Below, one piece after another: positions 33,172 through 64,000 of a stretch of DNA of 64,000 nt. Each line of letters opens with the position of its first letter. Position 1 is the first letter of the stretch. Origin of the DNA: Edaphochlamys debaryana. Taxonomy: Eukaryota; Chlorophyta; Chlorophyceae; Chlamydomonadales. The notes under the pieces are model-generated. The model had not been told where the DNA came from. It ran no database searches and worked only from the letters and a program-made list of their open reading frames with translations. The stretch is taken from contig JAEHOE010000055.1 in the NCBI GenBank assembly GCA_016858145.1, forward strand, positions 310,001-374,000, in the 5' to 3' direction. Made by a program: the position numbers and the translations under genes.

Positions 33172-33770
33172 TTGCCGCACCCTGCCCCTGCCTGCCCCTG
33201 TGCCGACACCCGCCCCTGCCTGCCCCTGTGCCGACACCCGCCCCTGCCTGCCCCTGTGCGGACACCCGCCCCTGCCTGCCCCTGTGCCGACACCCGCCCC
33301 TGCCTGCCCCTGTGCCGACACCCGCCCCTGCCTGCCCCTGTGCCGACACCCGCCCCTGCCTGCCCCTGTGCCGACACCCGCCCCTGCCTGCCCCTGTGCC
33401 GACACCCGCCCCTGCCTGCCCCTGTGCCGACACCCCGCCCCTGCCTGCCTGCCCCTGTGCCGACACCCGCCCCTGCCTGCCCCTGTGCCGACACCCGCCC
33501 CTGCCTGCCCTGTGCCGACACCCGCCCCTGCCTGCCCCTGTGCCGACACCCGCCCCTGCCTGCCCCTGTGCCGACACCCGCCCCTGCCTGCCCCTGTGCC
33601 GACACCCGCCCCTGCCTGCCCCTGTGCCGACACCCGCCCCTGCCTGCCCCTGTGCCGACACCCGCCCCTGCCTGCCCCTGTGCCGACACCCGCCCCTGCC
33701 TGCCCCTGTGCCGACACCCGCCCCTGCCTGCCCCTGTGCCGACACCCGCCCCTGCCTGCCCCTGTGCCCA
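33172..33770. repeat. Minisatellite, 28-bp unit, ~21 copies, at the truncated 5' edge of copy B
   Basis: The unit is CGCCCCTGCCTGCCCCTGTG plus CCGACACC, in inverse orientation to the array at 30177-30466. A few units carry indels (near 33432 and 33508). It ends directly at the acceptor of the first remaining exon of copy B. Confidence 0.9.
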
Positions 33771-44511: not shown

Positions 44512-46050
44512 TTATGCCGCCGGCGGCCTCAGCAGCGAGTCCTGCGTGCTGTCCATCATCTGCGGCGGCAGCCAGTACATGCCCTGGTACGGCACACCTG
44601 CCGTACCGCCCGCCGCCATGATGCCGCCGCCGTTGACGAGGATGGGCTTGCTCGGGCCCGCGCCGCCGGGCCCCCCCATGAACGCCGCGCCCGCTGGCCC
44701 CCCGCCCATCGCCGCTCCAGCCATGCCCGCCCCCGCCATCGGTCCCCCGCCCATGGGGCCTCCGGCCATGGGCCCACCGCCCATCGGCCCTCCCGCCATC
44801 ATACCGCCGCCGCCCGCTGCCCCCGGCATGGTCGGCAGCGGCGGCGAGGCGGCCGATGGGAGGCTCGATGCGGTCATGAGCCCCGAGGCCCCGCCCATGC
44901 CAGCCTGCTGCATGGCCATCTGCGGGTGGCCGATCGCGACGCCTGCGAACAAGGACGGCGCGGCCCAGAATGGTCAAGGCGCAGCGGAGAAGAGCAGACA
45001 ACCAAGTGCACACCCACAAAGCAGGAGCCCCAATAACCATTCTGCTCATACGGCTCGTGTCATACACGTTTACTGCGGATGTTTGAAACCTGCTCACCGG
45101 CCATGGACGTGCTGGGCATCATGCCCGGGCCGGCCATCATCATGGGCTGGCCCATGCCCATCTGCTGCTGCGCCATGCCGGCCCCTCCCATGCCCATCTG
45201 CCCCCCGGGCATGCCTCCTGGCATCCCCGTCATCATGAGGCTCTGCTGGTACAGCTGCTGGCCCCGCTCCCGCTCCAGCGTGGCCACACGTTCCTGCCAG
45301 GGCAAGGTAACCCGCGTGGCGTCAATTCAAGGGTTTGGACAACACCTTCCCCCCCGAGCTTCGAAGCGCCCGCCGACTGTGTGCTGTCCGAGTCCCAGAC
45401 CATACCCGGGCCGTACCTCGAGGAACTTGTTGAGCTGCTTCAGCTGATGATTCTCTACCGTCATCTGCTGCACGAACTTGATAGCGTCCGTTAGAATGGT
45501 TGTCTTGTCCGTCTTTGGCTCACCACCGGGGTCAACTAACCGCGCGAGGTCAAGGAACCTGCGGCAAAACACGCCCGACCCGCGTCACAGGCTGACAATG
45601 CAAGTTAGGCGCCCCGCCGTCACAGCGGCCAACACCCTTCCGGAATCCCGCTTACCGCTCGTTGAGCTTCTCTCGCCGGGCCTTCTCCCGGCAGGCCTTC
45701 TTCGCGGCAGCGGCGGTCACTTCCGAGCGACCCCGCTTGCCAGAGGCCTTCTCCCCTCGCTCGTCATCATCATCCGAGTCCGAAAGCCCAGCATCCTCCA
45801 GGGTTCGCTTGGCAGGCGGCATTCCCGAGCCACCCGCTCCGCCTCGCCCTGTGGAGCCCCCCGCCCCTCCGAGCGGGTCTGCGACCTGGACTACGGCCTC
45901 TAGAGTTGCTGTGTCAAGGGCTTCGTTGCCAAAGACCACAAGCTCGTCGTTCAGGAACTCCAGAAAGCTGGAATTGAGGTCGTGTGCCTTCGCGTCCTCC
46001 TCCCTGGCCTCGAGCTTTAGCTGCGGGCTGGGGCCAGAATCCGCTGACAT
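44512..46050 (-). CDS. ILR3-like bHLH transcription factor (subgroup IVc)
   Basis: Exons in coding order: 46050-45656, 45558-45417, 45293-45098 and 44942-44512. They total 1164 nt (387 aa). An acidic N-terminal part (SSFLEFLNDELVVFGNE) is followed by a nuclear-type basic stretch and the bHLH: basic region KKACREKARREKLNER, helix 1 FLDLARLVDP, loop GGEPKTDKTT, helix 2 ILTDAIKFVQQM, then a leucine-zipper-like extension HQLKQLNKFLE. A long Met/Gly-rich region (repeats of GGPMGGGPMAGG) precedes the extreme C-terminus YQGMYWLPPQMMDSTQDSLLRPPAA (split here by description only: a Tyr/Trp/Pro block, then DSTQDSLLRPPAA). That last block is the hallmark of plant ILR3/bHLH104/bHLH34 proteins, which regulate iron-deficiency responses. 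An iron-related role here is inference. ATG 46050 is the first in frame. Confidence 0.85.
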
Positions 46051-46801
46051 ATCGTTGCAATTGTCGATTAGCGCGGCATGATCCGCGTTCTGCGCAAGGT
46101 TCAGAGGCGGTCCCCGGTACAATCGCACACGCGCGACGGCGGCGACAGGCCTCGCCTGCCGTGACTAGGCGCCGTGTCTATCAAAGCTCGCAGCTACCTA
46201 CTCGGATGGAAGTTTCCAAAGGCGCGGGGTGAGTGGCTGATCTTTCTCCCCTCGCGCCGTACGGCGTCCGTTTTGGAGGGCATAAAGGCGCGGCCTGCTC
46301 GCTATGCGTATTGGCGAATCTAGGATCGTGCAAGCAATTGAGAGTAGAGCGCAGCTGGGGGGCCGAGTGGGTGCGCGGGGTGCGAGGGAGGAAGACTCGA
46401 GCTGGTCGGGAGGCGCGTGCCAAAAGTGCTTCCAAGCGCCGAACAAGCGGCCAGCGCCGCGCCGGAACCCTAGGCCCTGGGGCTCGCCCTAGGCACCCCC
46501 TCTTCCACGCGGTGCACACCTGGGCACATCCGGCATCACACAGCTATATACACGACGCGGCACGGCAGCACCCTCCTCGCGGTCCAACGACTGCAGCCGT
46601 GCCAGCAGCCCACGTGCCCGAACCCAACTTGCCTTGCCCCTAGCCCACGCCCTGCTCCTTCCGCACCCAAGCCCACTCCAGCAGGCATCACCCCGTCATC
46701 CACGTCCTCATCCACACCCTCCTCCTCTTGGCTCCTGTTAGCGGTCTATTGCTCCTACAGTCCTCCACGCCCGGCGCCAGGCCGCCTCACGACGCACCTC
46801 C
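46051..46801. other. Intergenic region between the bHLH gene and IFT46
   Basis: Should contain the bHLH promoter and the 3' UTR of IFT46. TATATAG on the minus strand near 46540 is a possible TATA box, about 500 bp before the bHLH ATG; weak evidence. No gene recognised. Confidence 0.4.
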
Positions 46802-49039
46802 TCACAGCCCCAGCACGTCCGCGCCGCCCGGCCCGCCCACGCCGCCCATGTTGTCCAGCCGGTTCTCCATCTCCATGTGCTGCGGCGAAGCAGACACGAG
46901 AGGGAAGGTTAGCCACGGGGTTTCAGGACGAAGTGCATGCAGCTCTGCAGCTTCGAGGCTCGCTGGGCCTCGGCGGGCCGGCCAGGCCATTTGGCAGAGC
47001 AACAACACGATCTGCGTGCGACCTACGAAGCCGGGGCAAGCAGCAAGTAGCAAGGAGTCGCACCTGTCGGAAGATGGGGTTGTTCTTGAACTCCAGGTAC
47101 AGCGTGAAGAGCACGTGCAGCGACTCGATGGGGTCGTCGTACACGGGGATGTCGAGCAGCGTGCACACCAGCTTGGCGTACGTCTTGACGTCCAGCTCCT
47201 GCGGGGGGGGGGGGATCGCAGCAAGGGGAGTGAGGGGCAGGCAGGGAGGGCAGTTGGTTGAGGCACAGTGGGCAAGGGTAAGGGAGGAAGGGAAAGGGAC
47301 AGAGGGCGGACAACGCAGGCTGCAAAGGCAAAGGCAGGCCTCCTTGTTGCGCATGGATTGCCCTTCCGCTCCGCCGGCGACCCTCGCCGTGTCATCCGAC
47401 GCAACCCCGCCAGCAAACCTGCGGCGCCCCGCCCCGCACGCACCACGTCCCCGCTGGGCATGCGCATGGTCTTGAGGAAGTGCTCCACCTCGGGCGGCCA
47501 CTCCTGCATCAGCGCCTCGATCTCGGGCATGCGCTTGCTGTACGACACGCTGGCGGCGGGCTTGGCCTTGTGGATGTCCATGATGGAGGCTGCGGGGCGG
47601 AGCAGGTGCGCAGGCGCAAGGTTTCACAAAGATCATCACGCGTTGCCGTCACCTGCCAGCCGTGCCAGGAGCGCTTCTTGCACCGGGCACCACGACCGCT
47701 ATGCCGGTACCCAAGTCGTGGCATGCGCGCTCCCGCTCTCGCCCGGTGCCGCTCGTCCACTCACTGATCCACTGCTGGATCTTCTTGGCCTTGTTCTCGT
47801 CCGTGTGCTCCAGGCGGCCCACCATGTCGGCCTTGGCCCCGGGCGCCTCCTTGGAGAGCTGGCGCAGCTGCAGCGTGAGCACAGTGGGGTCCGACTGCCG
47901 TGCTGCGGGCTCGTCCAGGACCTGGGCGGTGGTGGGGGGGAAAGGGACGGCGGGGAGAAGGGGGATAAGCATACCGAGGGAAGGGGGTCAGGGGCTGGGA
48001 TAGGCGCTTCAGTCACGTTATGTCCTTCGCCGGTCCCGCCAAAATCCTGAGCACAGGGCATCAGGTCTGCCCACATGGCGTCCGACACAGGTCAGCGCCA
48101 GGCCCCTTGGCCACCATTCCGTCGGCCCTCTCTTCCTTCACTGCCTTGGCCTTCGCTCCCCACCTTGAGCCCCAGGTAGTCCGGCTTTCCGTCTGGCCGC
48201 GCGACCTTGATGAACTCATCGATGCCGCCCACAGCCGGGATGTAGTCCGGAATGAACGGCTTGAGCTTGGTCTCCAGCTCAACGGTCTGGGGCTTGTAGC
48301 GCCCAATGTAGCTGAACAGCTCGCGCACGTCGTCGGGCACGTTCAGGTGCTTGTATTCCTGGGCGTTGTATGCGCCCGGGGGCGGAGCGTCGGCGTCCCC
48401 GCCCGTCGCGCCCGCTGTGTGTGCCAGCCCCGCGAGCGCTGCGGTGGAGCAGGAGGAAGTTGGGAGGGACCAGGAAGCGAGGGGAAAAGGGAAGTGTTGG
48501 GTTGAGTGGTTGGCTATGATGGAACGCTCACAGCTGCGTTGGCCTCGGTTGGCCCTTGCCGCCTGCTTGAAGCCTTCGAGGACCCGCACTCACGCTTGTG
48601 CCCCCTTACCCTACCCGCCCCGTCCCCCTGCCCCTGGCGCCCCCACCCACCTCCGTGCTTCGCGCCCTGCGCGTCATATGCGTCCGGTGATAGTGTCCGA
48701 GCCGGAGCCGCGGGCCCGTCGTCCATATCGTTGGACTCTATGAGGGAGGCATCTGCGGACGGGCAAGGGCCGCGCGGTGCACATCAGCATTAGCCCACGC
48801 GGGGTGTCAGCAGCGAGGGGATGTCTAACCTCTAGGTACAGCTGGAGGCTCATCTGCTCCCGCGAAGCTCTCAGACTCACTGAGGTTCACCTCCTGCGCA
48901 CATGTGGGCGACCAACCGCGCGGCAGGGTTAGCGTGGGGACAAGCCGCTGTGCGACGCATCGATGGAGCCGCTTACCTCGTCATGCGGCTGGTTCTGCAC
49001 CACGGTTGACCGCGCGGTGCCCCCCAAGTCGCCTTCCAT
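46802..49039 (-). CDS. IFT46: Intraflagellar transport protein IFT46 (IFT-B complex)
   Basis: Exons in coding order: 49039-48977, 48893-48830, 48752-48651, 48438-48164, 47921-47765, 47589-47444, 47198-47064 and 46879-46802. They total 1020 nt (339 aa), with every junction in phase. The N-terminus is MEGDLGGTARSTVVQ followed by an acidic, probably disordered region. The conserved core has YKHLNVPDDVRELFSYIGRY, KPFIPDYIPAVGGIDEFIKV, VLDEPAARQSDPTVL, LEHTDENKAKKIQQWI, KRMPEIEALMQEWPPEVE, and a C-terminal helical domain DVKTYAKLVCTLLDIPVYDD...LYLEFKNNPIFRQHMEMEN. This is the IFT46 family known from Chlamydomonas and animals, a core IFT-B subunit needed for cilium assembly and outer dynein arm transport. 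Length and domain order are normal for the family. The exon 2 donor (AGAG|GTTAGA) is non-consensus but is the only one that keeps phase. Confidence 0.93.
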
Positions 49040-50032
49040 TTCTCCGGAGACCTGCTGGCCGGAGCCAAGCGAGTCAGGCAAGCCCGCACAAAGCCACCTC
49101 TAAGCTGTTATCGCACCCCGTCGTCTTCTCGGTAGAAGGAGTCGTCCATTTAGAGATATGGCCAAGGTCTAGCGTAGGACCACGCTCGAGGCGCGGCGCC
49201 TCCCTGGCGGGTCCTACAGTCTGTAGAATGTGTATGCAGCTAGCTCGAGGCGTGTGGCATGTTAAGCGCCTCTTGCAAGTCCGCTGCCCCCGGAAGTCTG
49301 GTCGCGCGGGCCTAGCTTGTGGAGAGTCCGCTTACGCTATCGAGGCAGCTTGAGCTAACGCAACGATCCAAGCTACTACCTGCTGGCTCCATCCTCCCAA
49401 GAAAAAAATGTTGTACGGCAACATTCTGCACACGCGCGTTCAATGTGCCCCCTTCTTTCTTTTCGCTTTCACGCTGCTGCGAAGGTTGTTCCGGACGCAG
49501 GGGGGGCACGTTCCCCTCGACCACACACTCGCATCCCCGCGATGGCTCGGAGATGGCTGCGATGCGAAAGCGCCTTCTGCAAGCTCGGAGTGCCACAACC
49601 TGGGCGCCTCACGCCTCGATCGGGTTCATCAGTTTCGGGGACAATGGCATGCCAACTGCGGCTGCAAAGGGGGTGCCCTCAAGTCGAAGGCGCGGGGGGC
49701 GAGCGTGGGCATGGCGGGGGGACTCGGCGCGGTGGCAGGGCGGCATGCCGGGGCCGGATCCCGCGCTCAGGAGCCCCCTTGACCGACGTCCCCCACACCC
49801 AGAGCTCATTTCGAGCTCACACCGTCACCCAGCGAGCTTGGAGCTTGCCTCGCACAGCTGGCGCACCATCCCACCCGACTCGCGTCACGCGTGAGATGCC
49901 GCGCCAGCCGCTTGGGCGCAAGCGTAGAGCCCCAGGCCGCAAGGCACCCTCTCTGTGCTAAGCTATCATCGTCTCATCCAATCGGGACCTTGCCGGTGCG
50001 AGCTGCTATCTCGCGCGAGCACGAGCGCAGCC
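49040..50032. promoter_or_regulatory. Divergent promoter region between IFT46 and the giant H2A-fold gene
   Basis: About 1 kb between two start codons on opposite strands. No coding sequence recognised. It should contain regulatory elements of a ciliary gene; none could be named with confidence from sequence alone. Confidence 0.5.
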
Positions 50033-51898
50033 ATGGATCCCAGGAAGGCGGCAAGCCCCTCCGCGAGGCATCAGAGCTTGCCGAGCACTCCTGCAGTCCA
50101 TCAAGACGCGCGGCAAGCTGCCGCCGGCGGCCCAGTCGCCGCAAATGCGGAGCCTCGCGGCGCGGCCGGAGCCCCGACCCACGGGGCGCGCCGCGCTGCT
50201 GACGCTCCCCAAGTCGAGCTCGCGCCTTCGCAGCAGCAGCCGCAGCAGTCGATACAACAAGATATGCCTGCAGCAGCGGCCTTCCAGCGGCCGGCAGCTG
50301 CTGTACTGGCAGCAACCCAGGCGGTCGGTGGTGGTAGCGGCGGCGGAAGCTCTGGCGATAGCGGGAGCGGGGCCGTCGGCGCCGCCCTCCAGGTAGACTC
50401 GGCTGCAGGCGCCAGCGGCGGGGGAGCCGCTGTGCCCAGCATCCTCGCGCCGGCGGGTCCGTCGGCGTCGGAGGTGAACGCCGCCGCTGCGCTCTTCGCG
50501 GCGCCGCCGCTGCCGCCAGCACCCACTGCAGCGCCCCCTCCCGAGACCCAGCGGCAGCACCCCGAGCCGCCGCCGCCCACGCAGCGATTGGTCCCCGCCA
50601 CCCAGCCCCTGGCGCGCCCTGCACAGCTCCCGGCCCCACCCGCTCCCCAGGCCTCGCCTCAGCCGCAGCCAAATTCCGAGCCCCGATTGGGGTGGCTTGT
50701 GCCGGACCAGGCCGCAGTCCTGGAGGCCACCGTGCCCCTCAGCTCCGGCTCCGGCGGCACTGGCGACGGCGGCGGCGGCGGCGGCAGCAGTGGCGGCGGT
50801 GCCGACATCCCCGCCACGCTGCCGCTTCCACAGTCGGCGGTGGTCCCGGTCGGCACACTGCCCTTGCGCCAGACGTCGTCGCAGCCCGCCGCCCTAGCTC
50901 TAGCCCTGCTGCCAACGCAGCCGGTTGTGGGATTTGCTAGCACGCCTGCAGTCCCTGCCGCAGCCGCCGGGGCCTCCGGGGGTGGCGGCGGCGAGGCTCC
51001 CGCTGGGGGGGCCCCGTCCTCACAGGCTCCGTCGGCGGCGCCGGCTGTGACGCTGGGCTTTGGGATGGGCAGCGCCGGCGGCGGTGGCGGCGCGTCTGCA
51101 GCACTGACCGGAGCGGAGGGGCCTGGGAGCGGCGGGCCCGCAGCGGCGGCGGGGGGGGGCTCGGCGGCGGCGGCAGCAGCAGCCGACGAGGCAGCAGAAC
51201 CCGTGAAAGGTGCGGCGCCGGCGGAGGTCGAGGCTGCGTCACAGCGCCTGCCGGCGGGGCTGCAGCCGGGCAGCCAGCCGCAGTCCCCGACGGAGACGGG
51301 GCCGTGGCTCGGGACCCAGCCGCGCTCCAGCGACTCCGCCGCCGCCGCCGCCGCCGGCGGCAGCAGTGCAGGCCGCGAGACAGGCGGCAGCAGCTCCGCC
51401 GCCGCCGAAGCTGCCGCCCTCGTTCCGGACCTGGTCCCCTTCCGTACGGCACCTGCGGCGACGATGAGGCCGCCTTCGGCGGCGGCGGCGGTGGCAGAGC
51501 CTTCCGTCACCCCCGATCTGAACATGGGCGCGCCCGGCGGCGCCGTCGCCGCTGCCGACGGCACCGGCACGCAGCCCGACGTGACCGGCCCCGCCGCCGC
51601 CGCCACCGCTGGCCAGCCCACCGCCGGAGCGGCAGCAGAGTTGGGCCTCGGCGGCGGCTCGGATGAGACTCAGCCGCCGAGCTCTGACCCGTGCTCTCAG
51701 CCCTCCGCCGGCACCGACGCAGCCCGCCCCCACGCGACACTGCCGTCTGCGGGGCCCGACGGCGGCGTCGGCGCTGCGGCCGGCGGCGGCGGAGAAGAGC
51801 ATGCGCATTCGCCGTCGCCAGGAACTGTACCGGCGCCGCAGGGCCCAGGCGGGAGTCAGCCCCTGGTCATGTCCCTGGCGCAGGGCGTGCCTGAGCTG

Positions 51899-51933
<35 letters not shown>

Positions 51934-52152
51934 AGAGGAGGCGGCGGCGGCGGCGGCGGAGGCAGCTGGTGGGGAGGGTCTCGAGCGGCAGGGCCATGTG
52001 TTCATGGCGCCCACGCCCACGGGCCTCTCGCCCGAGCAGCGCACTCCACTCGACGCTGGCGGCGGCGGCGGCGGCGGGGCTGGCGGCCGCCGCGGCGGCG
52101 GCTCGCCGCTCTACACCGCCGCCGCCAGGGGCTACCAGCCGCCGTCGGGCGA

Positions 52153-52187
<35 letters not shown>

Positions 52188-55100
52188 GTGTGACGCCTGG
52201 CAGCGGCCCCGCTGGCGCGGCGCAGGCCGCTGCGGCGAATGCGGGGTCGGCGGGGCGGAACCGGAGGCAGCGGCGCCAAGTGCGGAGGCTGCTGCTGTGG
52301 GGGGACGTGGAGGAGGACGAGGAGGGGGAGCAGGTGGGTGGGGCGGAGCGTGGAGGGTGGGGTGGAGGGCGTTGCGGGACGGGGGTTGTGTGTTGGGGTG
52401 CTGCAAACATGTTGGCCGGTTGCGAAGTGCTAAGTTATGAGGGCATGCAGCCTGTCTGAGGTTGCGCCGCGAGGTGATAAGGGCTGCATGTCGCAATGGG
52501 GCCTGAGAAGCTGTCGGGTGCGTGTGCTTCTGGCTGCAATGTTGCACGCACGCTGAGGGCTGCGGCTCGGTCGAATGCATCATTGAACCCCCTTGTGCCC
52601 CCTTGTCCCATGCTCCTGCCCCCCAAAGGTCATCGTGCGGCTAGGGGAGGTGGAGCTCACGACTGCCGCCGGCGCGTCGCCTGCCTCCCTGCCACCGCCG
52701 TCACTGCTTGGGGCCGCTGCCGGCGCCGCCGCCGCCGCCAGCCCCGTCGCCGCCGAGACACCCGCCGGCGCCAGGTCCTCCGACGCTGCCGCTGCCGACA
52801 CCACCCCCGCCACCGCGGGAGCGCTTCTGCCTGGCACCGGTGGCAGCCTCTTCGGCGTGACCAAGACCCGCCGTCGGCTGTCCGTCGCCACCCCCGCCGC
52901 CGCCGCTACACCTGCCGCCGCCGCCGCCACGCCTGCCGCCGCCGCCGTCGACGCGGGCCTTGCCAGCCCCATGTCCCCCGACGGCCTGCCGTCGCCCCAG
53001 CCCTCCCCGAGCCCGCCACCACGTCGTACCCAACTGCGCACAGGGGCCCAGCGCCGCCGCACCGCTGCCGCCACCGCCGTTGACGCCGCCGCCACCGCCG
53101 CCGTCGCTGACGCCCGCGCCGCCGCCGTGCCGCCCCAAGCCGCCCTTGCCCTGGATCTGGACCAGCGGCTCCTTGGCGCCTACGGATCACCACCGCAGGC
53201 GGCGGCGGCGGCGGCAGCACTGGCAGCGGCGGAGGACGTGACGGCGGCGGCCGCCGCCGCCAGGCGCCTGACGCCAGGCCGCATGGTCATTCAGACCACC
53301 TGGATCACCGACGCTGCCGGCGCGCCCCTCTCGGGAGTCCTGACCGACACCTACCTTTTTGACGGCTCCGCCGCGCCTGGCTCCGCCGCCGCCGCCGGGC
53401 TCCTGCCGCCGCCGCCGCTGCACATCACGGCCCGCGTCGCCGCCACAGCGGCGGAGCGGCCGCCGCCGGCAATGCCAGGCCTCGGCGGCCGCGCCTTCCA
53501 GCTGCCGCCGCTGACTTGGCCTCGGGCCTTTGGCGGCCTGGCGCGACCCGGCGGCGGCGCCGCCGGCGGCGTGGCGGCGTCCGCCTCCGCTGCGGCCGTG
53601 GGAGCGGCACAGAGGCCGGCCCACGTCACACGTGTTCTGGTCAACCCCTGGCGGCGACCGGGCCCCGCGGATCAGGCGGAGTGGGAGGGCCTGGCGCGGC
53701 AGTTCGAGGACGTGGCGGGGCCCAGCCGTGCGGCAGCCGTACAGCAACATCAGCTGGTGCCGTACTCGAGTCGGCTGATGCCGTTTCCGGTACGGCAGCT
53801 GCCGTACGGGGACGCGCAGGAGCAGGGCAGGGGCCTGGCGGAGGCGGCTGGAGCTCTGCACGGTGGGGAGGCGGACCAGGCGCCGGCGGGGACAGCAGGG
53901 GCGGCGGACGCGGCGGGCGTGGGGGCTTTGGCGCTGGAGGCAGGCAGCGATCTGGGGGACGGCTTTGAAGCCGAAGCCGAGGAGGAGGAGGAGGACGAGC
54001 AGGGTCTTGAGGAGCACCCAGAAGCTGCGGATGGTCAGCTATACGATTCCCAGAAGGTGGGTGTGGGGGTGGCGTGGGGGTGGTTGGGTGGCCGTACATG
54101 GTAGGTCTTCAGGTGGGGTTTAAGGTGCACCCGTGGCGTGGACCTTCTCTACAGCTCGCCTCTTGTCCTGCCCCTACCCCTGGCCCTCCACCCTCGTCAC
54201 CATCACCGCCCTTCTTTTGTCACAGGAGGCTGGCCTTGAAGCCGAGGCCGAGGCCGAGGTGGAGGAGGCGGAAGAGAAGGAGGAGGAGCAGGATCTGCTG
54301 GAGGAGCAGCCGGAAGCTGCGGATGAACAGCTGCCGTACGGCGCCTTCGAGGGCGAGGAGGACCTGGGGGAGGAGCCGCTGCTGGCGGAGGCGGGGGAGC
54401 AGCTGCCGGAAGTTGCGGAGCCTTTTCTTGCGGAGGCTGGTGAGGAGCGGCTGGCTGCCTGTGGGTCGGAGGGGCAGCAGGCAGCTGGCGGAGGGGCTTC
54501 CGAGGCAGAGGAGGAGGGTGCCGTCCGCCCCAATGGGTCGGAGGGGCAGCAGGCGGCCGACTATGAGGGGCAGCCGCCCCTCGAGGAGCGACATGCCGCC
54601 CATGCACTGGCGGCGGATGCGGAGGAGGAGGAGGGGGAGGGGGAGGAGGAGGATCAGGGGGAGGGGGAGCAGCAGGGAGAGGAGGAGGATCAGGGGGAGG
54701 AACAGCTGGAGCAGGAGCAGGAAGAGGGGGAGGGGGAGGGGGCGGAGGACGAGGCAGCGGCTGCCGCTGCGGAGGAGGAGGAGGAGGAGCAGACGGCAGC
54801 TCTCTCGCCCATCCCAGAGGGGGAGAAGGGGGAGGAGGAGCAGCGGCAGGAGGGCGGCGAGGAGGAGCAGGAGGGAGAGGATGCCGGGGCTGCCGAGGAA
54901 TTCGCAGCGGCGGGCGGCTTTGGCAGCTTCCAAGAGGCAGAGCCCTTTGTCGGCGGCGCCGCAGCGCCCACCGCCGCTGCCGCCGCCGCCGCCGCCGAGA
55001 CCGCCGCCGCCACCGAGATCGCCCCAGTGGCCAACATGGCTGTCCTTGGCCGCCTGTTTGTGATGGGGAGCTTCCGGGCGGGGGCCGCTGACGGCCGCCT

Positions 55101-58100
55101 TGCGGAGGCGGGGGCCGCTGACGGCCGCCTTGCGGGGGCGCAGGCCGCCGTGGCGGCCGAGGAGCAGGACCATGGGGAGGAGGGGGCGGGGGCGGAGCGC
55201 TTGAGCGGCGGCACTGCGGCAGCTGCCGTGGCAGCGGCGGCGGAGGTGGAGGCGGCGGAAGCAGAGAGGGAGGCGGCTGCAGCAGAGGCCGAGTATGCGG
55301 AGGCGGAGGCGGAGGTGGAGGCAGGGGAGCAGACCCAGCTTGTCCCCGCGCAAGTCCTGCCGCAGCCCCCGGCCCATAGGGCTGAGGGCCCTGCGGTCGC
55401 CCCAACAGCGGCGACGGAGGCGGGCATCGCCCATCCCGCCCTCCGGGCCGTCGCCGCCGTCGCTCCAGCCGCCCGTCCTCGTGCCGTCGCCGCCGCCGTC
55501 ACCGCCGTCGCTGCCTCCACCGGGACAGCCGATGTGGCGAACGTCGTTGTCGCTGACCGGCTCTCGCTGATCTCCTCCGTGGGGCCCGCCGCAGCCTCCG
55601 CGCCCGCCACTGCCACGGCCGTGCCCGCAGCCGCCACCTCCCCACCCCAGGCAGCGGCGGGGCCTCTGGGGGGCGCAGCGGAGGCGACTGAGGCAGGGGC
55701 TCCTCCGCCTGCTGCCGCTGTGGCGGGTGCGGGTGCGGGTGCGGCTGGGGCGCCTGCGCTCGCGCCCGTGGACGCAGCTGCCGCGGCGGAGCTGGAGCCA
55801 GAGCGGCAGGCGGAGGCGGAGGCAGAGCCGGCGGCAGAGCTTGAGCCGAAGGCAGAGCCAACGCCGGAGCCGGAGGCGGAGCCAACGCCGGAGCCGGAGG
55901 CGGAGCCAACGCCGGAGCCGGAGGCGGAGCCAACGCCGGAGCCAGAGCGTGAGGCCGAGCAGGAGGCTGAGCCGGCGGTGGAAGTGGAGGCCGGGGCAGA
56001 GCTCCCGGCAGGTGTGGAGGGCGTTGGCGCTGCGGAAGCGGGGGCCGCCGACGGCAACCCTGTGGAGGCGGCGGTCGCCGAGGCGGCGGTGGGGCAGGCG
56101 GAGGAGGCCGCCGAGGCGGCCGACGAGGAGGACCAGGAAGAGGAGGCGGGGGAGGCGGAGCGGCCGATGGTGGAGGGCGAGGGCCTTGTGCTGCCTGCGC
56201 TGCCGGTCCTGGGACCGGTGCTGGGGGGGAAGCGACCTCGCCGCGTTCAGGTGAGAGTGGCCCTAGCTAATCTGGGGCTTGGGGCCCTACCACAGGTGGG
56301 AAAGCAATGTCAGCACACCAATGTCACAAACCGCCTTGAACGCTTGAACACTTGATTCTAGGCTAGCAGGTTGCGTTTCGTGGTGCATGCTGCTTGCTGT
56401 GCGCGGTGCACGGCCCTCCAAGCTCTAAGCACAAGGCTTGCGGTGCCCCTTGCTTCCTATCAAGCCGTGCCGCCTGCTGAGCCGTGCCCTCCCTTGATGC
56501 CTCTGCAGGGGCACCACCGTGCCGCCGCCGCCATCGCGAGGTCGCCCACCGCTTCCGCCGCCACATCACCCAGCGTCGCCGCAGCCGTCGAGCAAGAGGC
56601 GGCGACGGTACTGGAAGCCGCGGCGGCGGCGGTGGCGGCGTTCGCCGCCAACGCTGACGAGGACGCGGCGGCGGCAGACGAAGAGCTACGGCTCCTGTAC
56701 GAACGCCGCGGCCACCGTCCCGCCTCCGCCGCCGGAGCTGCCGCCGCAGGCGCCGGCATTGCCGGAATCCAGATCCAGCCTGATCTGTACGACAGCGAAG
56801 ATGAGGCGGCGGGGCTGGAGGGGCTGGAGGAGGCTTTGGGGCTGGGGCTGGGGCTGGGGCTGGAGGAAGACGAGGAGTCGGCGGGGCTGGAGCGGCGGCG
56901 GCGGGGGGCGGCGGCGGTGCGGGCGGCACGCCAGGCGGCGGAGGAGGCGGAGCGGGAGGCGGCGGCCCTGGAGGAGGCGCTGACGCAGGCCGCCACACTG
57001 CTGGTGGAGAGCCAGCGGGCGGCGGAGGCGGCGGAGGCGGAAGAGGAGGCGGCGGAGGCGGAGGCGGCGGAAGCGGATGAGGCAGCGGAGGCAGCGGAAG
57101 CGGAGGCGGAAAGCGAGGTGGAGGAGGATGCCGGGGAGGAGGGCTTGGAGGAGGCCGTGGCTGCGGCTGTTGCGGGGCTGGGTCCGGAGGCGGGTCGACG
57201 GACAGCCGCCCAGGCTCAGGCGGCCGAAGCGGCGGCGCGGGCGGCCGAAGCGGAGGCCGAAGCGGAAGAGGCAGAGGCGGAGGCGGGCGAGCTGGAGGCG
57301 GCGTTGGAGGCAGCGGTGGCGGAGGCGGCGGAGGCAGCGGATCTGCCGGAGCCGCTGGCGGCTGCGGCGGAGGGAGAGGCAGAGGGAGAGGACCTAGGGC
57401 GCCCTGTGGCGGGCATTGTGATACAGATGAACTTCCTGCCTCGGGCGACGGTAGAACAGGCAGCGGCGCGGGTGGTCGAGGTGGCCGAGGCATTCGAGGC
57501 TGCCGTGGCCGAGGCTCGAGCGGCCCCGTTGGCGGATGCGGAGGCGCCGCCGCCGCCGCCAGGGGCAGAGGACGCCGCGCCCTCGCCGCCGCCATCCCCA
57601 GCCGCTGCCCCGCAGCCGCCGCCGCCGGCGGCAGAAGAAGAGCAGGCGCGCCGCCAGCGCCGCCGCCGCCGCTGGCACGTCCCGCCAATGCGAGAGATCC
57701 TCATGCACCAAGACGAGCAGCAAGCTGACGGCGAGGGCCTGTTGGCGGAGCCGCCGCCGCCAAGGACGCCACCGCCGCCGCAAACGCCGCCGCCGCAACT
57801 CGAGCCGGCGGCGGCGGCGGCGGCTGAGGTGGGGTACGGCACCCGAGTCGAGGCGGTGTGGATTCGGGCTTTCTCAGTGGAGCCAGTGATCGAGGAGCCG
57901 CCGTCAGAGGCCGAAGCCGACGGCGAGATGGCGGCGGCAGCAGCGGCGGCGGCGGCGGCAAGGGTGACGGTGGCGGCGGCGGCGGCGGCGGCCGTGGAGG
58001 TTAGCCCGACGGCGGCTCAGGGCCGGCTGCGGGTGTCCGTGCTGAGCGGCGGCGACGGCGGTGTAGCAGGAAGAGGGCGGGCGGCGGTGACGTCGCCGCC

Positions 58101-61100
58101 AACAGGTCGGGTGGCGGACCTGTTTGGCGAAGCGGCGACGGTGCCTTTGGGAGCGGCGGCGGCGCCGTTCGTGGTAGAGCCCCTGATCCAGGAACCCAGC
58201 ACTGCGACTGGGACTGCCTCCGCTGGCGGCGGCGGTGATGGGGCCGTCAGCAGCGGCGCCCGCCTGCTGGTCGCCTCCCCGGCTCCTGCCGCCGCCGCCG
58301 CCGCCGCCGCCGCTGCCGCCACGCCCTCCTCCGTCAGGCGGCGGCGCACCAAGCTCCTCGGCAACATGGGCACCGTCAGCCTCTTCGCATCGCCGCCGCC
58401 GCCGCCGCCGCAGCGGCAGCAGCGGCCGACGCCGTCGACGGCGGCGGCGCCGCCGCCAGCGACGGCGGCTCGTCCGGCAGCGCAGGCCGCGGTCTTGCCG
58501 ATGCCCATGGCGCCGGTGGAGGCGGCTATGGCGACCCCGGCAGCCGCCCGCCGTGCGCCTTTCCAGCCTGCGGTAGCGGCGACGGCGGCGGCGGAGGCTG
58601 AGGCGGCGGAGGCGGAGGGCGGCGGAGAAGAGGGCCTTGACTTGGTGGAGTCCCCTGACTTGGTCCCGCCAGGTGAGGTGTGGACGGTGCAGGGCGTGGG
58701 GCGTGTGGGGGCGCGTGATGCTTCTGCCTTCTGGCAGCAAGGCTAGACAGCTAGCATGGGGACTCATTGGGGCCACTCCATAAGTGTGCTGAATGCAGAG
58801 AACCGCCCCAACCCTCGCTAACCCAGTCCCACCTCTCTCGCCCGACGACTTGCTCCCAGGTATGGACACCGCCGCAGCGCTGGCGCGTGGCTTCATCGCC
58901 GCCGGCACAGGCACCCCACCCGACGAGGCGGAGGCGGCGGAGGCGGCGGAGGCGGGTGCAGAGTGGGAGCAGGAGGCCCCCGCCGCCGGCTCCGCAGCGC
59001 GCCGCCGCCATCGGCCGCACACGCACGCTGCGGCGGCGGAGGCGGAGGCGGAGGGGGCGGCTGCTGCCGGCATCGAAGCCGATGCTGACCTGCTCTTCGA
59101 CCCGAACCAGGTAAGGCAGAGGCGGAGGGGGCTGCGGGCGCTGGGGTAGCGGTTCATACCGACTTGCGCTTCATTTGACCCAAACCAGGTTGGGGCAGAG
59201 CGCGGTCCTAGCAAGCTGTGCCGGAGTAGAAAGAAAGACCCCGCGACCCTTCCGGCCTCCTCGCAACACTGCAACACTGCAGTGACTCCATTACTACAAC
59301 TGCAAAGGCGACCACGCCCTTCCACCCTGCAGGTCCGCAGCGGCGCCCAGCCCGCTGCCGCCATGTCACTCTCCGCCCACGCCCACGCCCCGGCCCACCC
59401 CCACGCCGTGCCTGCTTCGGCGGGTCTCGCGGGGGGCGAGGGCGAGGGCGAGGGCCGGTACCTGTACCGGGCAGAGGAGGAGCTACCGATGGCCCGTGGC
59501 CGTGACCTCCAGCCCCCACGTGGGGAGGGTGTGGGGGAAGGCGTGGGTCAGCATGCAGAGGAGGAGGAGCAGCAGGAGGAGGTGGAGCCTGTACGAGTGG
59601 ACGAGGGCTTGCCACCGGGGCGGCGTCTGGAGCGGCAGAGGGAGATGCGGCGGCAGCGCGACTCGGTGGCGGCGGCGGCGGAGCGCGCCGTCGCCGCAGC
59701 GGACGCCGCCGCCGCCGCTGCGACGGAGCCGCCGGCGGCGCCAGCTGAGGCGGAAGAGGCAGGGGCGGCGGGTGATGAGGAAGCACCGTTCCTGCCGGGT
59801 GACGTGGCGGGTCCTGCGCCGTCTGACGTCAGCGGCGGCGGCGTCAAACGCGCCGCTGAGGTGTCGGCGGAGGGTGCTGCGGCGGCGGAGGCGGCGGAGG
59901 CTGCCAGCAGGGGTGGCAAGAGCGGCGCACGCAAGCGGCAACGCCAGGCCGCCGCAGCGGCGCCGCCGCCGTCGACGATCACCGGCGTCCTCACCCGTCG
60001 CGGCGCCGCCGCCGCTGCTGCTGCTGCCGCTGCCGCCGCCGCCACCGGGGTGGTGAAGCCGGCATCGCCCAGCCGTGCGGCTAAGCCCGCGCCGCCGTCG
60101 GCCCGAGCCCCGGCTCCCGCCGGCACACCTCCCGCCAGCCCTTCGAAGCCGGCGGCCAAGAAGGCAGCGACGGCGGCTGCCGCCGCCACCCCCGCCGCCG
60201 CCGCCCCTGCCGCCGCCCCTGCCGCCGCCGCTGCCGCCACGGCCACGCCGCCGCCGCCGTCGTCCCAGCGTAAAAAGCGGCCCACGAAGCTCCTAGGCAG
60301 GATGGGCGTCGTCAGCCTGGTCGACATGCTTCGCGCCGCCGCCACCCCTGCCGCCGCCGCCGCTCCCGCTGCAAACGGTGTGCCGACGGCCCCACCGCCG
60401 CCGCCGCCGCCTCGCGGGGCCGTACCGCCGACGGCACCGGCGGCTGGCCCCACACCAGCGCCCGTGGCCCCCGCGTCGCCCGGCCCCTCCGCCGGCGCCG
60501 CCGCCGGCCCCGCCACCGCCGCCGCCGCTACGGCAGGCGGCAGGGGCGGCGGCTCACCCGTTGCAAGAGGCGGCAGGGGCGGGGGCAGGGGCAGGGGCGC
60601 ATCGCTGTTTGCTGCCCTCCGTGCGGAGCGCAAGCGGCCCCGGGAGGAGCCCCACGGCGAGGCGGGACAGGGACAGGGCGGCGCGGAAGGGGAGGAGGCA
60701 GCGCCGGCGGCCGCGACGGTGCCGCAACCAGTCTCAGTCCCAGCGGCGGCTGTGACCCCGCATGTAGCCCAAGAGCCGCCAGCAGCCTCACCCGGGCCTT
60801 CCCGCAAGCGGGGTCTGGAGCAACCGACATCCGCGGAGCCGCCCGCGGCGGCAGGGGCCGGAGCTGCAGCTGATGCGGCGGCGGAAGCGGGGCCAGGTCC
60901 TTCCGCCCTTGCGGAGGGGGCGCAGGTGGTCCCGGCTGTGAAGCGGTTCAGGCTGGGGCCTGGGGCCGCCCGGCCGTCGGCGTCGCCCCCCGCACCGCAA
61001 GCAGCTCTGGGGCAGGCGGAGGAGGAGGCAGCGGGTATGAAGAAAGCTCGGGCGGCAGAGGAGGAGGGAGGGAAGGAGGAGGTGCGAGCGGAAGAGGCAG

Positions 61101-63270
61101 GAAAATACAAGCCGGCAGAGGTGGCAGAGGAGGAGGAGGACGGGGGCTACGACGGCTATGACGCCTTCGGGCCCTCCCCCTCGCCGCCATCGCCCGCTCG
61201 TGAGGAGGCAGAGGCGGGACCAGCCCAGGCCCAGGCCCAGGTGGCCCAGGCCCAGGCCCAGGCCCAGCAGGCTCCAAGCGGTGCTCCCGCTGCGCCCGCG
61301 CCCGCCCCAGCTGCCGCAGGGCCGCCCGCGCATCCCGCTCCTCAGGCGGCGGCGCCGCCACCGTTTCCTCAGCCCCTAGCAGCAACCCAGCCCGCCCCAC
61401 AGGCGGCGCTCGCTCAGCCCCCGGCCCCAGCTCAGCCCCAGCCCCAGCCCCAGCGCCACCTGCAGGCCCAGCCCCAGGCCCAGGCCCCCACGCACCCTGC
61501 CTCCCTCCTCGCCTCCCTCCCCGGCTCGCAGCCCGGCGCCGGCCCCCGCACCACCCGCGTCAAGGCGGCGGCGGCGGCCCTGGCGGCGGCCTCCCAGCAG
61601 GTTGCCTCTCAGCGCGCCGCCTCCCAGCAGGCCCCTTCGCAGCAGGCCCCTTCGCAGCACGAGGCGCCTGCGGGAGTCAGTCAGGGAGCCCCTGGGGCTG
61701 GCGGAGCCCAGGGCGCCGCCGGCCCCAGCACTGCCGCTGCTGGCGGCCCGGGCCCCGGGCCGCTCGGCTCTCAGGGCCTGGGCCTGGGCCTGGGCCTGGG
61801 CTTGGGCCTGGGCGGGTCCCAGGGCAGCGCCGGCGGCGGCCCCGCCGCCAGCGGCCAGGCTCGGCAGTTGGTGGGCCGCGCCGCCGCCGCTCTGCAGCGG
61901 GCCATGGGGCTGTCCCAGGGCTCGCAGGGCTCCCAGGGCTCGCGGGGATCGCGGCGCGCTGGGGGCACGTCTCGGGGCCGGGCGCCCGCCGCAGCGCCCG
62001 GCGCGACTGCGTCCCCCAAGGGCCGAGCGGCGGCGGTGCCGTCGGGTGCGGCAGCGGCAGGGGCTGGAGCAGGCCCCTCGGCTCCCGCTGCCGCGGCGCT
62101 CGTAGCGGCGGCGGCGGCGGCCCGGGCCGGCGGCGGCGGCTCCCAGTCCCAGCGGAGCGGCGGCTCCGCCGGGGCCTTCAGGGTCGCCGCCGTGGTGCCG
62201 GCGCGCGGGGGTCTGGCGGGCGTCCGTCAGAGCCAGAGCCAGGGCCGTGCAACGGGCGGCGGGGGCCGCGGAGGCCGCGGAAGGGCAGGAGCCGCAGGAG
62301 GAGGAAGGGGCCGAGGAGGAGGAGGCGGAGGCGGCAGGGGCCGGCGTGTGACTCACAGCGAGAGGGCGGGGCTGGTGCTGCCGGTCGCCCGGATCCGGTC
62401 GGGGCTGAGGGAGGGGCCCACCCGGGGCGCTCGTATCAGCGCAGGTGGGTTGTCGTGCCTGCTTTTCCCCGTGTCACACGCCTCCGCTCAGTGCACGTGG
62501 GCCGCGGGGTCGGGGTCGGTGGGGGGCGGAATCAGGGGAGAGCGAAAGAAGCACGTGTGCGGGTGCGGTGAGAGGAGCAAGGCTCCCAGGAAGCATTGCC
62601 CCCACCATGCTGTTACTGCTGGTGCTAAACCGATTCCCCATGTCACACGCCTCTCCCACCACACACACCCGCAGGCGCGCCCGTGTTTCTGGCGGGAGCG
62701 CTCGAGTTCCTGGTGGTGAGCCGGGGCCGCATGGGGAGGGGAGGAGCTCCACAGCTGATGCTGAGGCGGTATTCACATCCAGGAAATGCAGGGGGCGCTA
62801 GTCTAGCGAGTCCTGCGTTTTGCGCGCACCTTCCCGCCCCCCCCCCTTCTCCCCTCCCCCTCAGGCTGAGGTCCTGGAGCTGGCTGGCAACGCGGCTCGC
62901 GACATGGGCCGCCGCCGCATCAGCCCGCGCCACATCTCCCTCGCGGTAGGGGTCGGGGACGGGAGGGGAGGAAGGGCCGGCCAGTCGGAGTCGGCTTGTG
63001 TTGGAGTGGCCTGCGTGCGCCCTTCACGTATACTGGTCTCCGTCCTCTCGGCCCTCGCCCGCCTCTCTCCGTGCCTTATCACCTCTCCCCTCCCCCGCCT
63101 CTCTCCGTGCCTTATCCCCTCTCCCCCTCACGCCCCCTCCCCCATTCCCCCCCCCCTGTCAGGTCCACGGGGACGCCGAGCTGGACTCCCTCCTGCGCAG
63201 TGCCGTACTGCCGGGAGGGGGGGTGCAGCCGGGCATACTGCCGCAGCTGCTGAGGCGGGCGGGGGCGTGA
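50033..63270 (+). CDS. Giant low-complexity protein with C-terminal histone H2A fold (3836 aa)
   Basis: Exons: 50033-52333, 52629-54056, 54226-56250, 56509-58672, 58860-59110, 59333-62444, 62675-62715, 62865-62945 and 63163-63270. They total 11511 nt, with all eight junctions in phase. Start context is GCAGCCATGG. Residues 1-~3730 are Ala/Pro/Gly/Gln/Glu-rich. A strongly acidic block lies at ~54620-54790. TKLLGNMGTVSL (residue ~2533) and TKLLGRMGVVSL (~3042) form a conserved pair. An RGG-like stretch comes just before the histone part. The end is H2A: SERAGLVLPVARIRS, GARISAGAPVFLAGALEFLV, AEVLELAGNAARD, RRRISPRHISLAVHGDAELDSLL and GGGVQPGILPQLL, split over four exons. Canonical H2A has E-E-E-D-E-E in the acidic patch; here one Glu is Ala (HGDAEL for RNDEEL). 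The fold itself is certain. That the whole upstream frame belongs to it rests on phase continuity and is likely but unproven. Function unknown; a chromatin role is inferred. Confidence 0.75.
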
Positions 63271-63588
63271 GGGGGGGTGAGGGCTGGAGGGAGACCTGGG
63301 GAGACGGGAATGCGGAGAAGAGGGCGGGGGGGCTGAGGGCAGGAGGTAGGGGACCCGTAGACCCGAAGGTCTGGAGAGGGCTGAGAAGACGAGAGGTGTT
63401 GAGGCAAGCCAGGCGGGGGAGGTTGCGAGGGCGCAGTGCGGGACATGGTCGGACCGAGGGCGGGGCGAGAAGGCTGCCCAGAGGCGGGCTTAGTCCTGAG
63501 AAGGGTCTGGATTGCAAGGGCGCAGTGCAGCGGGTGGTGGTAGGGGGCCATGGAGTTGCGGGCAAGTTGGCGTGTGTTGCGGGTGTGT

Positions 63589-63593
63589 GTAAG
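63589..63593 (+). terminator. Polyadenylation signal TGTAA of the H2A-fold gene
   Basis: TGTAA about 320 bp after the stop codon at 63268-63270, a normal 3' UTR length for Chlamydomonas, whose usual polyadenylation signal is TGTAA. Confidence 0.5.
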
Positions 63594-64000
63594 ATGAGGT
63601 CGGGGAAGGGCTCCGTTCAGGGGATAAAGGGGATTCTGTGCTCGCAGGGGCCGTGCAGCGTAGTCCGGACGATGACGAAGGGGTATGCAGCTGAGCGCGC
63701 TGTCGCAACGCGAGAGAAGAAGGCAGGGCATACAGGGGATGGAGGTCGCTCACTGGCCCTCAGCTCCCCATACATCCACAGCACTCCCTTGGCGACATGT
63801 GCTGCCGTACGTTACCAGAATCTCGTGGCCTCGCTCGTGCTGACCGTGGATGTCGAGCCAGCTCCTTAGCCTGCGACGGATGCGAACAGCGGTGTGACCT
63901 TATGGCGGAGGCGCGGCCTTGCGTGTAGCGCAATCCATCAGCGAGCATGCCGGCCCAGACCCCCGTTTTGATTGGGGGCGCTGTAGCCACAGCTGCGCTA
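63594..64000. other. Right-edge region, no gene recognised
   Basis: Downstream of the presumed polyadenylation site. The open frames on both strands have no recognisable motif. Confidence 0.5.

What the first reader, a model, noticed from the sequence alone, without database searches (positions are those of the whole stretch)
50033..63270. Histone H2A fold as the C-terminus of a ~3800-residue protein
Exons 6-9 encode an unmistakable H2A (SERAGLVLPVARIRS, AGAPVFLAGALEFLV, AEVLELAGNAARD, PRHISLAV, GGGVQPGILPQLL). In exon 6 the H2A start is in frame with more than 1000 codons of Ala/Pro/Gly/Gln-rich sequence, without a stop or an intron between. Five further upstream introns keep the frame back to an ATG at 50033. 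Known H2A variants carry C-terminal additions (macroH2A) or small tails; a histone core behind ~3700 N-terminal residues is, to my knowledge, not described. The gene has introns inside the histone fold, unlike replication-dependent histone genes.
Basis: partly seen in the sequence, partly recalled or inferred. Interest (0 to 1): 0.93.

Follow-up and report, generated by a model that had tools for sequence, protein, structure and literature searches.

The report
Giant protein ending in histone H2A
A unicellular green alga appears to carry a gene whose predicted 3,836-residue protein is mostly low-complexity sequence but ends in a divergent, lysine-free histone H2A; such an arrangement was not found elsewhere in our searches, but no RNA evidence was available to prove that the long form is made.

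Summary
A nine-exon model, 50033-63270 (+), reads through to 3,836 residues with GT-AG introns in phase and one terminal stop. Residues 3727-3836 are an H2A fold (Pfam PF00125 and PF16211; PDB H2A chains). The low-complexity exons look coding: 0 stops against 38 expected, and 61 of 62 tandem-repeat rows have periods divisible by three, against 21 of 31 in a control stretch. A motif that a genome search found only here occurs once in exon 4 and once in exon 6. The assembly fits Edaphochlamys debaryana. The best-supported relative is a 127-aa Chlamydomonas reinhardtii "histone H2A variant", which suggests a shared variant distinct from canonical H2A and H2A.Z. No comparable fusion appeared in three protein searches, which left two length gaps. 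Transcripts are untested. The nearest in-frame ATG gives 256 residues; a smaller H2A would need alternative splicing, which weak acceptor-like sites do not exclude. Best reading: a replication-independent H2A variant that anchors a ~3,700-residue arm to chromatin. Function is inferred.

The parts
50033..52333 (+). exon 1 (aa 1-767): Ala/Gly/Pro-rich, 15 SQ/TQ sites, ends in a basic patch RRQRRQVRR then acidic
   Evidence: open frame, GT donor; 0 stops against 6.8 expected; SQ/TQ 15 against 6.2 in shuffles
52629..54056 (+). exon 2 (aa 768-1243), no known domain; single-sequence fold of aa 938-1167 unreliable (pLDDT 38.7)
   Evidence: acceptor AAG, the weakest junction
54226..56250 (+). exon 3 (aa 1244-1918): strongly acidic, net charge -141
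56509..58672 (+). exon 4 (aa 1919-2639): acidic, net charge -70, carries the first TKLLGxMGxVSL motif
58336..58386 (+). motif copy 1, RRRRTKLLGNMGTVSLF (aa 2528-2544)
58860..59110 (+). exon 5 (aa 2640-2723)
59333..62444 (+). exon 6 (aa 2724-3760): 1,003 low-complexity residues, then the start of the H2A fold, without a stop or a predicted intron between
60269..60322 (+). motif copy 2, RKKRPTKLLGRMGVVSLV (aa 3036-3053)
61526..62242 (+). SQ-rich stretch (aa 3455-3693), 16 of the 18 SQ/TQ sites of exon 6
   Evidence: 18 SQ/TQ in exon 6 before the fold against 5.7 in shuffles; partly made by short tandem repeats
61904..61906 (+). nearest in-frame ATG upstream of the fold (M3581); would give a 256-residue product
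62342..62444 (+). H2A fold part 1 (alpha-N, alpha-1, L1 with a one-residue insertion)
62675..62715 (+). exon 7: start of alpha-2 (GAPVFLAGALEFLV, its G shared with exon 6)
62865..62945 (+). exon 8: alpha-2 to alpha-3 (AEVLELAGNAARDMGRRRISPRHISLA)
63163..63270 (+). exon 9: alpha-3/alpha-C and docking domain, stop TGA; protein ends RRAGA
   Evidence: PF16211
63588..63592 (+). TGTAA, the likely poly(A) signal, 318 bases after the stop; no other TGTAA on + between 42401 and the window end
   Evidence: UGUAA as the main C. reinhardtii signal: start of the abstract of PMC4025486
47064..48370 (-). divergent neighbour IFT46 (pieces 48370-48164, 47581-47465, 47198-47064)
   Evidence: PF12317 E 1.3e-62 for the joined pieces

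Best explanation
One gene encodes a 3,836-residue nuclear protein whose C-terminal 110 residues are a divergent, replication-independent H2A variant. Shown by sequence: the open spliced frame, the H2A fold, and a related variant in C. reinhardtii. Inferred: the fold pairs with H2B and enters nucleosomes in place of H2A, because most residues that do this are kept. It thereby tethers a ~3,700-residue, probably disordered arm to chromatin (SQ/TQ-rich at the far end, strongly acidic in the middle, basic, SQ- and RG-rich next to the histone). The arm would leave the nucleosome through the H2A N-terminal tail path and act as a scaffold or charge-buffering, chaperone-like region, possibly controlled by ATM/ATR-type kinases at its SQ/TQ sites.
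For: Spliced frame with one stop. Coding nature: stop depletion; in the gene, 61 of 62 tandem-repeat rows outside intron 8 have periods divisible by three (rows can overlap), against 21 of 31 rows in the control stretch 20000-49000. Unity: a motif that a six-frame genome search found nowhere else occurs in exons 4 and 6; no pair as good in 60 block shuffles. Histone: PF00125 3.7e-12, PF16211 3.2e-4; best PDB H2A/H2A.Z chains E 4e-28 to 1e-26. Kept residues: five of six acidic-patch positions (E56, E61, E64, D90, E92; E91 is A), basic at four of five DNA-contact positions (29, 35, 42, 77; 32 is S), docking GGV.P.I (roles recalled). Lineage: groups with C. reinhardtii P0002 at 95/87, apart from the H2A.Z clade at 100/99; both share the L1 insertion GPxRGxRISAGAPV, loss of E91 and ISPRHISLAV. 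AlphaFold2 of P0002 gives a histone fold; the 50 best PDB matches listed are chains of nucleosome-containing entries. Not a replication gene: introns, TGTAA at 63588, no histone 3' stem-loop hit downstream, while Histone3 hits, all below the gathering score, appear in each of the 4 canonical loci given (of 28).
Against: No RNA or protein evidence. The giant form was not found among proteins of the lengths searched, and no E. debaryana entry for it turned up; whether that proteome is in the database was not checked. The relative P0002 is annotated as 127 residues. Its kinship is not firm: both rows are long branches (2.09 and 4.07), and the nearest row by path and by plain identity is P0003 (65 of 111, against 60 of 106 for P0002). 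Nothing ties exon 1 to exon 2 except splice sites, and that acceptor is weak. The apparent exon 2/exon 3 repeat did not beat 200 block shuffles (best 77, shuffle maximum 85), nor did the ungapped score of the exon 4/6 region with poly-Ala left in (79 against 84). The codon test was uninformative. Absence of TGTAA inside the gene is weak evidence, since only 0.47 were expected. SQ/TQ enrichment in exon 6 partly reflects tandem repeats. One acidic-patch residue and one DNA-contact arginine are lost.
Confidence: 0.53

Rival explanations
1. A shorter H2A variant is the main product: transcription starts inside exon 6 with translation at M3581 (61904) or an earlier in-frame ATG, giving an H2A with a tail of 146 to about 1,000 residues, or a separate short first exon is spliced into late exon 6; the upstream exons belong to another isoform or gene.
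For: In-frame ATGs in exon 6 at 59363, 59489, 59645, 60302, 60326, 61037 and 61904. The C. reinhardtii relative is annotated short. The nearest tail is basic and RG-rich, like a histone tail. Seven YAG sites after 61904 have 9-10 pyrimidines of 15, no fewer than two of the acceptors used.
Against: Upstream exons are stop-free in phase; the motif found only here links exon 4 to exon 6. No YAG with 11 or more pyrimidines of 15 lies in exon 6 after 61904, though that cut-off would also miss two of the eight used acceptors, and the AAG acceptor of exon 2 is not a YAG at all.
Confidence: 0.24
2. A non-nucleosomal scaffold or chaperone: the H2A fold is only a dimerisation module (as in NF-YC-type proteins) that binds H2B or H2A-H2B, and the acidic middle buffers histones.
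For: Very acidic exons 3-4 (net -141 and -70); divergence of the fold (56 of 111 identities to the cell's own H2A); a ~3,700-residue arm is hard to fit in packed chromatin (reasoning).
Against: Acidic-patch, DNA-contact and docking residues, which matter in a nucleosome (recalled), are largely kept, and the fold scores better against the core-histone model than against CBF/NF-Y (47 against 27.6 bits).
Confidence: 0.18
3. Artefact: two neighbouring genes, or a decaying H2A copy, joined by chance in a GC-rich region where frames stay open.
For: GC-rich exons (75-79% for exons 1-6) keep one antisense frame of exon 3 open too. The large H2A fusions that do occur in the database, e.g. with transporter or phosphatase domains, look like gene-model errors (judgement).
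Against: 38 expected stops absent, repeat periods divisible by three, an intact fold over four in-phase exons, and a related variant in C. reinhardtii.
Confidence: 0.05

Closest known systems
C. reinhardtii XP_001691141.1 'histone H2A variant' (P0002, 127 aa)
   Same: Same L1 insertion and RISAGAPV / ISPRHISLAV segments, same loss of acidic E91; 65% identity over 91 residues; joined at 95/87 in the tree.
   Different: Annotated with almost no N-terminal tail (begins MPRVSDLVLWPQVARVR) and with a 24-residue G/K-rich C-terminal tail; a fusion there is neither shown nor excluded.
Canonical H2A (28 copies in this genome)
   Same: Whole fold and docking domain.
   Different: 56 of 111 identities to the cell's own H2A; canonical genes match in one uninterrupted frame and lie on five contigs; the fusion fold has no lysine in its 110 residues.
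H2A.Z
   Same: One extra residue in L1, GDxELDSL and GGGV segments.
   Different: A separate H2A.Z gene sits on C12 with introns at other positions; the tree puts the fusion outside H2A.Z.
macroH2A
   Same: H2A core in a larger protein (recalled).
   Different: There the extra domain is C-terminal and folded (recalled); here the addition is N-terminal, over ten times longer and without a known domain in exons 1-4 and 6.
H2A.N of brown seaweeds (PMC12459048)
   Same: H2A with a lengthened N-terminal tail.
   Different: About 30 residues longer, against ~3,700; that paper did not detect H2A.N in the other genomes it searched, C. reinhardtii among them.
H2B-H2A doublets of giant viruses (PMC12297534, start of abstract seen)
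   Same: H2A fold in a fused protein.
   Different: The partner there is another histone; a scan of viral contigs gave no confirmed relative of this fold.

Membership tests
Histone H2A | H2A fold with H2A C-terminal docking domain | tested here: met
   PF00125 47 bits (cut-off 26.4), PF16211 20.9 (cut-off 20); PDB H2A chains
Histone H2A | Residues for H2B pairing, acidic patch and DNA contact | tested here: met
   10 of 10 chosen core positions identical to the cell's own H2A, 5 of 6 acidic-patch and 4 of 5 DNA-contact positions kept; choice of positions and roles recalled
Histone H2A | Incorporation into nucleosomes | not testable with these tools
   needs biochemistry
Replication-dependent histone gene | Intronless, in a divergent H2A/H2B pair, histone 3' stem-loop | tested here: not met
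   eight introns; divergent neighbour is IFT46; no stem-loop hit; pair arrangement of C. reinhardtii histone genes from PMC8226298, section Histones
H2A.Z | Position in the H2A.Z clade | tested here: not met
   H2A.Z clade 100/99 without it; it is a long branch, so its place is not firm
H2A.Z | Shared intron positions with the cell's H2A.Z gene | tested here: not met
   H2A.Z introns after RLLK, within the Glu of ILE, after DLK and after LIK; fusion introns within the Gly of RISAG, after EFLV, after ISLA
H2A.X | C-terminal SQ[DE][FY] | tested here: not met
   protein ends LLRRAGA; definition as given in PMC12459048
macroH2A | C-terminal macro domain | tested here: not met
   the protein ends with the fold; no Pfam domain above its cut-off in exons 1-4 and 6
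ATM/ATR substrate-like SQ/TQ cluster protein | Clustered SQ/TQ beyond composition | tested here: inconclusive
   exon 1: 15 against 6.2, exon 6: 18 against 5.7, 0 of 2000 shuffles each; repeats in exon 6 inflate this, and phosphorylation is untested

The most novel reading that the evidence does not exclude
A true giant histone: a 3.8-kiloresidue H2A variant that is deposited in nucleosomes and carries in cis its own effector arm (an SQ/TQ-rich signalling region plus an acidic, chaperone-like region), combining in one chain what other eukaryotes split between an H2A variant and the large mediator proteins that bind it; the H2A variant is old enough to be shared by Chlamydomonas and Edaphochlamys.
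Probability: 0.2. Interest if true: 0.88.

Novelty: new variant of a known kind. Interest (0 to 1): 0.63.

Why it matters
Histones are small proteins. An H2A variant carrying a ~3,700-residue N-terminal arm would test how much mass a nucleosome can carry and would supply a natural chromatin tether in a lineage with good genetics. The C. reinhardtii relative makes it testable in a model alga. If only the short form is made, the remaining result, a divergent H2A variant lineage seen so far in two volvocine algae and lysine-free in this one, is still not described in the papers my searches listed, as far as titles and shown abstracts tell.

Tried and rejected

Length limits of the protein searches: one search covers 2,110-6,713 aa, about 103-329 (186 of 789 candidates passed, 120 listed), about 632-2,012; 329-632 and 2,012-2,110 were not searched. 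Two papers that I asked for by id are not held (from recall, a top-down mass-spectrometry paper on C. reinhardtii histones and a eukaryote-wide chromatin survey).

Mended on re-check: the statement that no small H2A is possible was too strong (made for this check); kinship with P0002 is now given with the P0003 result against it; I lowered the main confidence from 0.55 to 0.53 and raised the short-form rival from 0.22 to 0.24 for that.
Full report
WHERE IT IS. The window is G000:C55:310001-374000 of a 141,892,200-base, 502-contig assembly. Size, largest contig seen (C1, 4,216,157 bases) and GC (window 66.8%) fit the published E. debaryana assembly (142.14 Mb, 527 contigs, longest contig 4.2 Mb, 67.1% GC; passages of PMC8226300). 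The species name is my inference from that fit.

THE GENE MODEL. Nine exons from ATG 50033 to TGA 63270 give 3,836 residues; all eight introns (149-295 bases) begin GT and end AG and the phases agree. Exons 1-6 are 75-79% GC, introns 59-70%. To the left, IFT46 is read on the minus strand (PF12317, E 1.3e-62 for joined pieces between 48370 and 47064), so the promoter probably lies between about 48.4 and 50.0 kb. To the right, the only TGTAA on the plus strand between 42401 and the window end is at 63588, 318 bases after the stop. UGUAA is the main poly(A) signal of C. reinhardtii (start of the abstract of PMC4025486, listing). Its absence within the gene means little, since 0.47 were expected.

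IS THE LOW-COMPLEXITY PART REALLY CODING? Across exons 1-6 the coding frame has no stop where dinucleotide shuffles expect 38. In the five long exons the other five frames hold 1 to 13 stops, with one exception: one antisense frame of exon 3 is also open. Of the 65 tandem-repeat rows in 49000-64000, three lie in intron 8; of the other 62, 61 have a period divisible by three (one of 22). In the control stretch 20000-49000 it is 21 of 31. Rows can overlap, so these are not independent counts. Open frames around other histone matches give a yardstick: at most 429 codons for the 28 canonical H2A genes and at most 443 among the 146 histone-family places listed, against 1,189 for exon 6. A synonymous-codon test trained on histone genes failed to discriminate and is not used.

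IS IT ONE PROTEIN? Exon 6 alone carries 1,003 residues of the arm and the first part of the fold, so an arm of that length needs no splicing assumption. For the upstream exons, the best internal repeat outside low complexity is TKLLGxMGxVSL, in segments starting at aa 2528 (exon 4) and 3037 (exon 6); 0 of 60 block shuffles gave any pair at the same threshold, and a six-frame search of the whole genome with both copies found only these two places. Plain ungapped scores with poly-Ala left in do not beat 200 block shuffles, nor does the exon 2/3 repeat. The exon 1/2 junction rests on splice sites alone and has an AAG acceptor.

COULD A SMALL H2A BE MADE INSTEAD? In-frame ATGs in exon 6 are at 59363, 59489, 59645, 60302, 60326, 61037 and 61904; the last gives 256 residues, 146 of them before the fold as delimited here. 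A standard-size H2A would need a short first exon spliced into late exon 6. No YAG with 11 or more pyrimidines of 15 lies in exon 6 after 61904, against 14 such sites before it. But two of the eight acceptors used have only 9 and 10, and at 9 or more there are 7 YAG sites after 61904, 2 of them with 10. So this is unlikely rather than excluded.

RELATIVES. At about 103-329 aa, 186 of 789 candidates match and the best 120 are listed. The top score is P0001, a pea H2A with an internal duplication; next come P0002, C. reinhardtii XP_001691141.1 'histone H2A variant' (113 bits), and P0003, from an unnamed source (112 bits). P0002 shares the extra L1 residue, GPxRGxRISAGAPV and ISPRHISLAV, and groups with the window fold at 95/87 in a 37-row tree (the window fold, P0002, five references and 30 further database proteins of the 123 held), outside the H2A.Z clade (100/99). 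Against this: both rows are long branches (2.09 and 4.07), and by path and plain identity P0003 is the nearest row (65 of 111, against 60 of 106 for P0002). P0003 lacks the L1 insertion and keeps E91, so I hold P0002 to be the closer kin. AlphaFold2 of P0002 (41-row alignment, pLDDT 77.0) shows a histone fold, and the 50 Foldseek matches listed are chains of nucleosome-containing entries. P0002 starts right at the fold, which suggests a truncated model (inference). Fusion-size relatives: none of 464 candidates at 2,110-6,713 aa; at 632-2,012 aa 3 of 1,865 candidates, from Coemansia, Camellia and an unnamed source.

THE ARM. Exon 1 and exon 6 are rich in SQ/TQ (15 against 6.2 expected, 18 against 5.7; 0 of 2,000 shuffles each); exons 3 and 4 have net charges of -141 and -70; exon 6 before the fold is +20 and ends in RG repeats. 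No Pfam domain reaches its cut-off in exons 1-4 and 6. Two arm pieces have no clear paralogue in the genome.

HOW IT LIKELY WORKS (inference). The histone end would be deposited as a replication-independent H2A variant, with the arm leaving through the N-terminal tail path. The basic RG part would lie near DNA, the acidic middle could hold histones, and SQ/TQ sites could be kinase targets. The first step rests on kept residues; the rest is composition only.

COMPARISON WITH PRINT. PMC12459048 (abstract, passages and section 9) describes new algal H2A variants, including H2A.N with about 30 extra N-terminal residues and a C. reinhardtii H2A.E; nothing of this size appeared in the parts I saw, and whether its CrH2A.E is P0002 I could not check. 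PMC8226298 (passages and section Histones) states that C. reinhardtii histone genes lie in divergent pairs and that non-replication histone transcripts are polyadenylated. Searches listed no paper whose title or shown abstract concerns an H2A with a giant N-terminal extension; most subscription journals are not held.

VERDICT. Observation confirmed; the fusion interpretation is likely but lacks RNA support. New variant of a known kind; interest 0.63.

Noticed in passing
window 47064-48370 (-): IFT46 (intraflagellar transport) gene, divergent neighbour of the fusion gene; a synteny marker for finding the locus in other volvocine genomes.
   Followed up: partly
G000:C6:963039-963390 (locus L062): An H2A copy split between two frames (open frame 438 for its first part), near an intact H2B at C6:962242 on the other strand; a pseudogene or an assembly error.
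   Followed up: no
G000:C81:148934-149167 (locus L074): The most divergent of the 30 H2B places (88% over 78 residues, open frame 116), on a contig without an H2A match; possibly a replication-independent H2B.
   Followed up: no
G000:C11:496028-509441: Three loci with histone-family matches in several short pieces, as if split by introns; type not checked.
   Followed up: no
window 59090-59190: The exon 5 donor context CTCTTCGACCCGAACCAG|GT is nearly repeated about 80 bases later as CTTCATTTGACCCAAACCAG|GT within intron 5: a possible alternative donor or recent duplication.
   Followed up: no
window 9882-14516 (+): A 1,545-residue open frame without a Pfam match at E 0.1.
   Followed up: partly
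window 45655-46164 (-): Open frame ending in AKKACREKARREKLNER, which looks like the basic part of a bHLH factor (recalled pattern); no Pfam hit.
   Followed up: partly
window 30180-30461 and 33173-33768: Two minisatellites whose 28-base units are reverse complements of one another.
   Followed up: no
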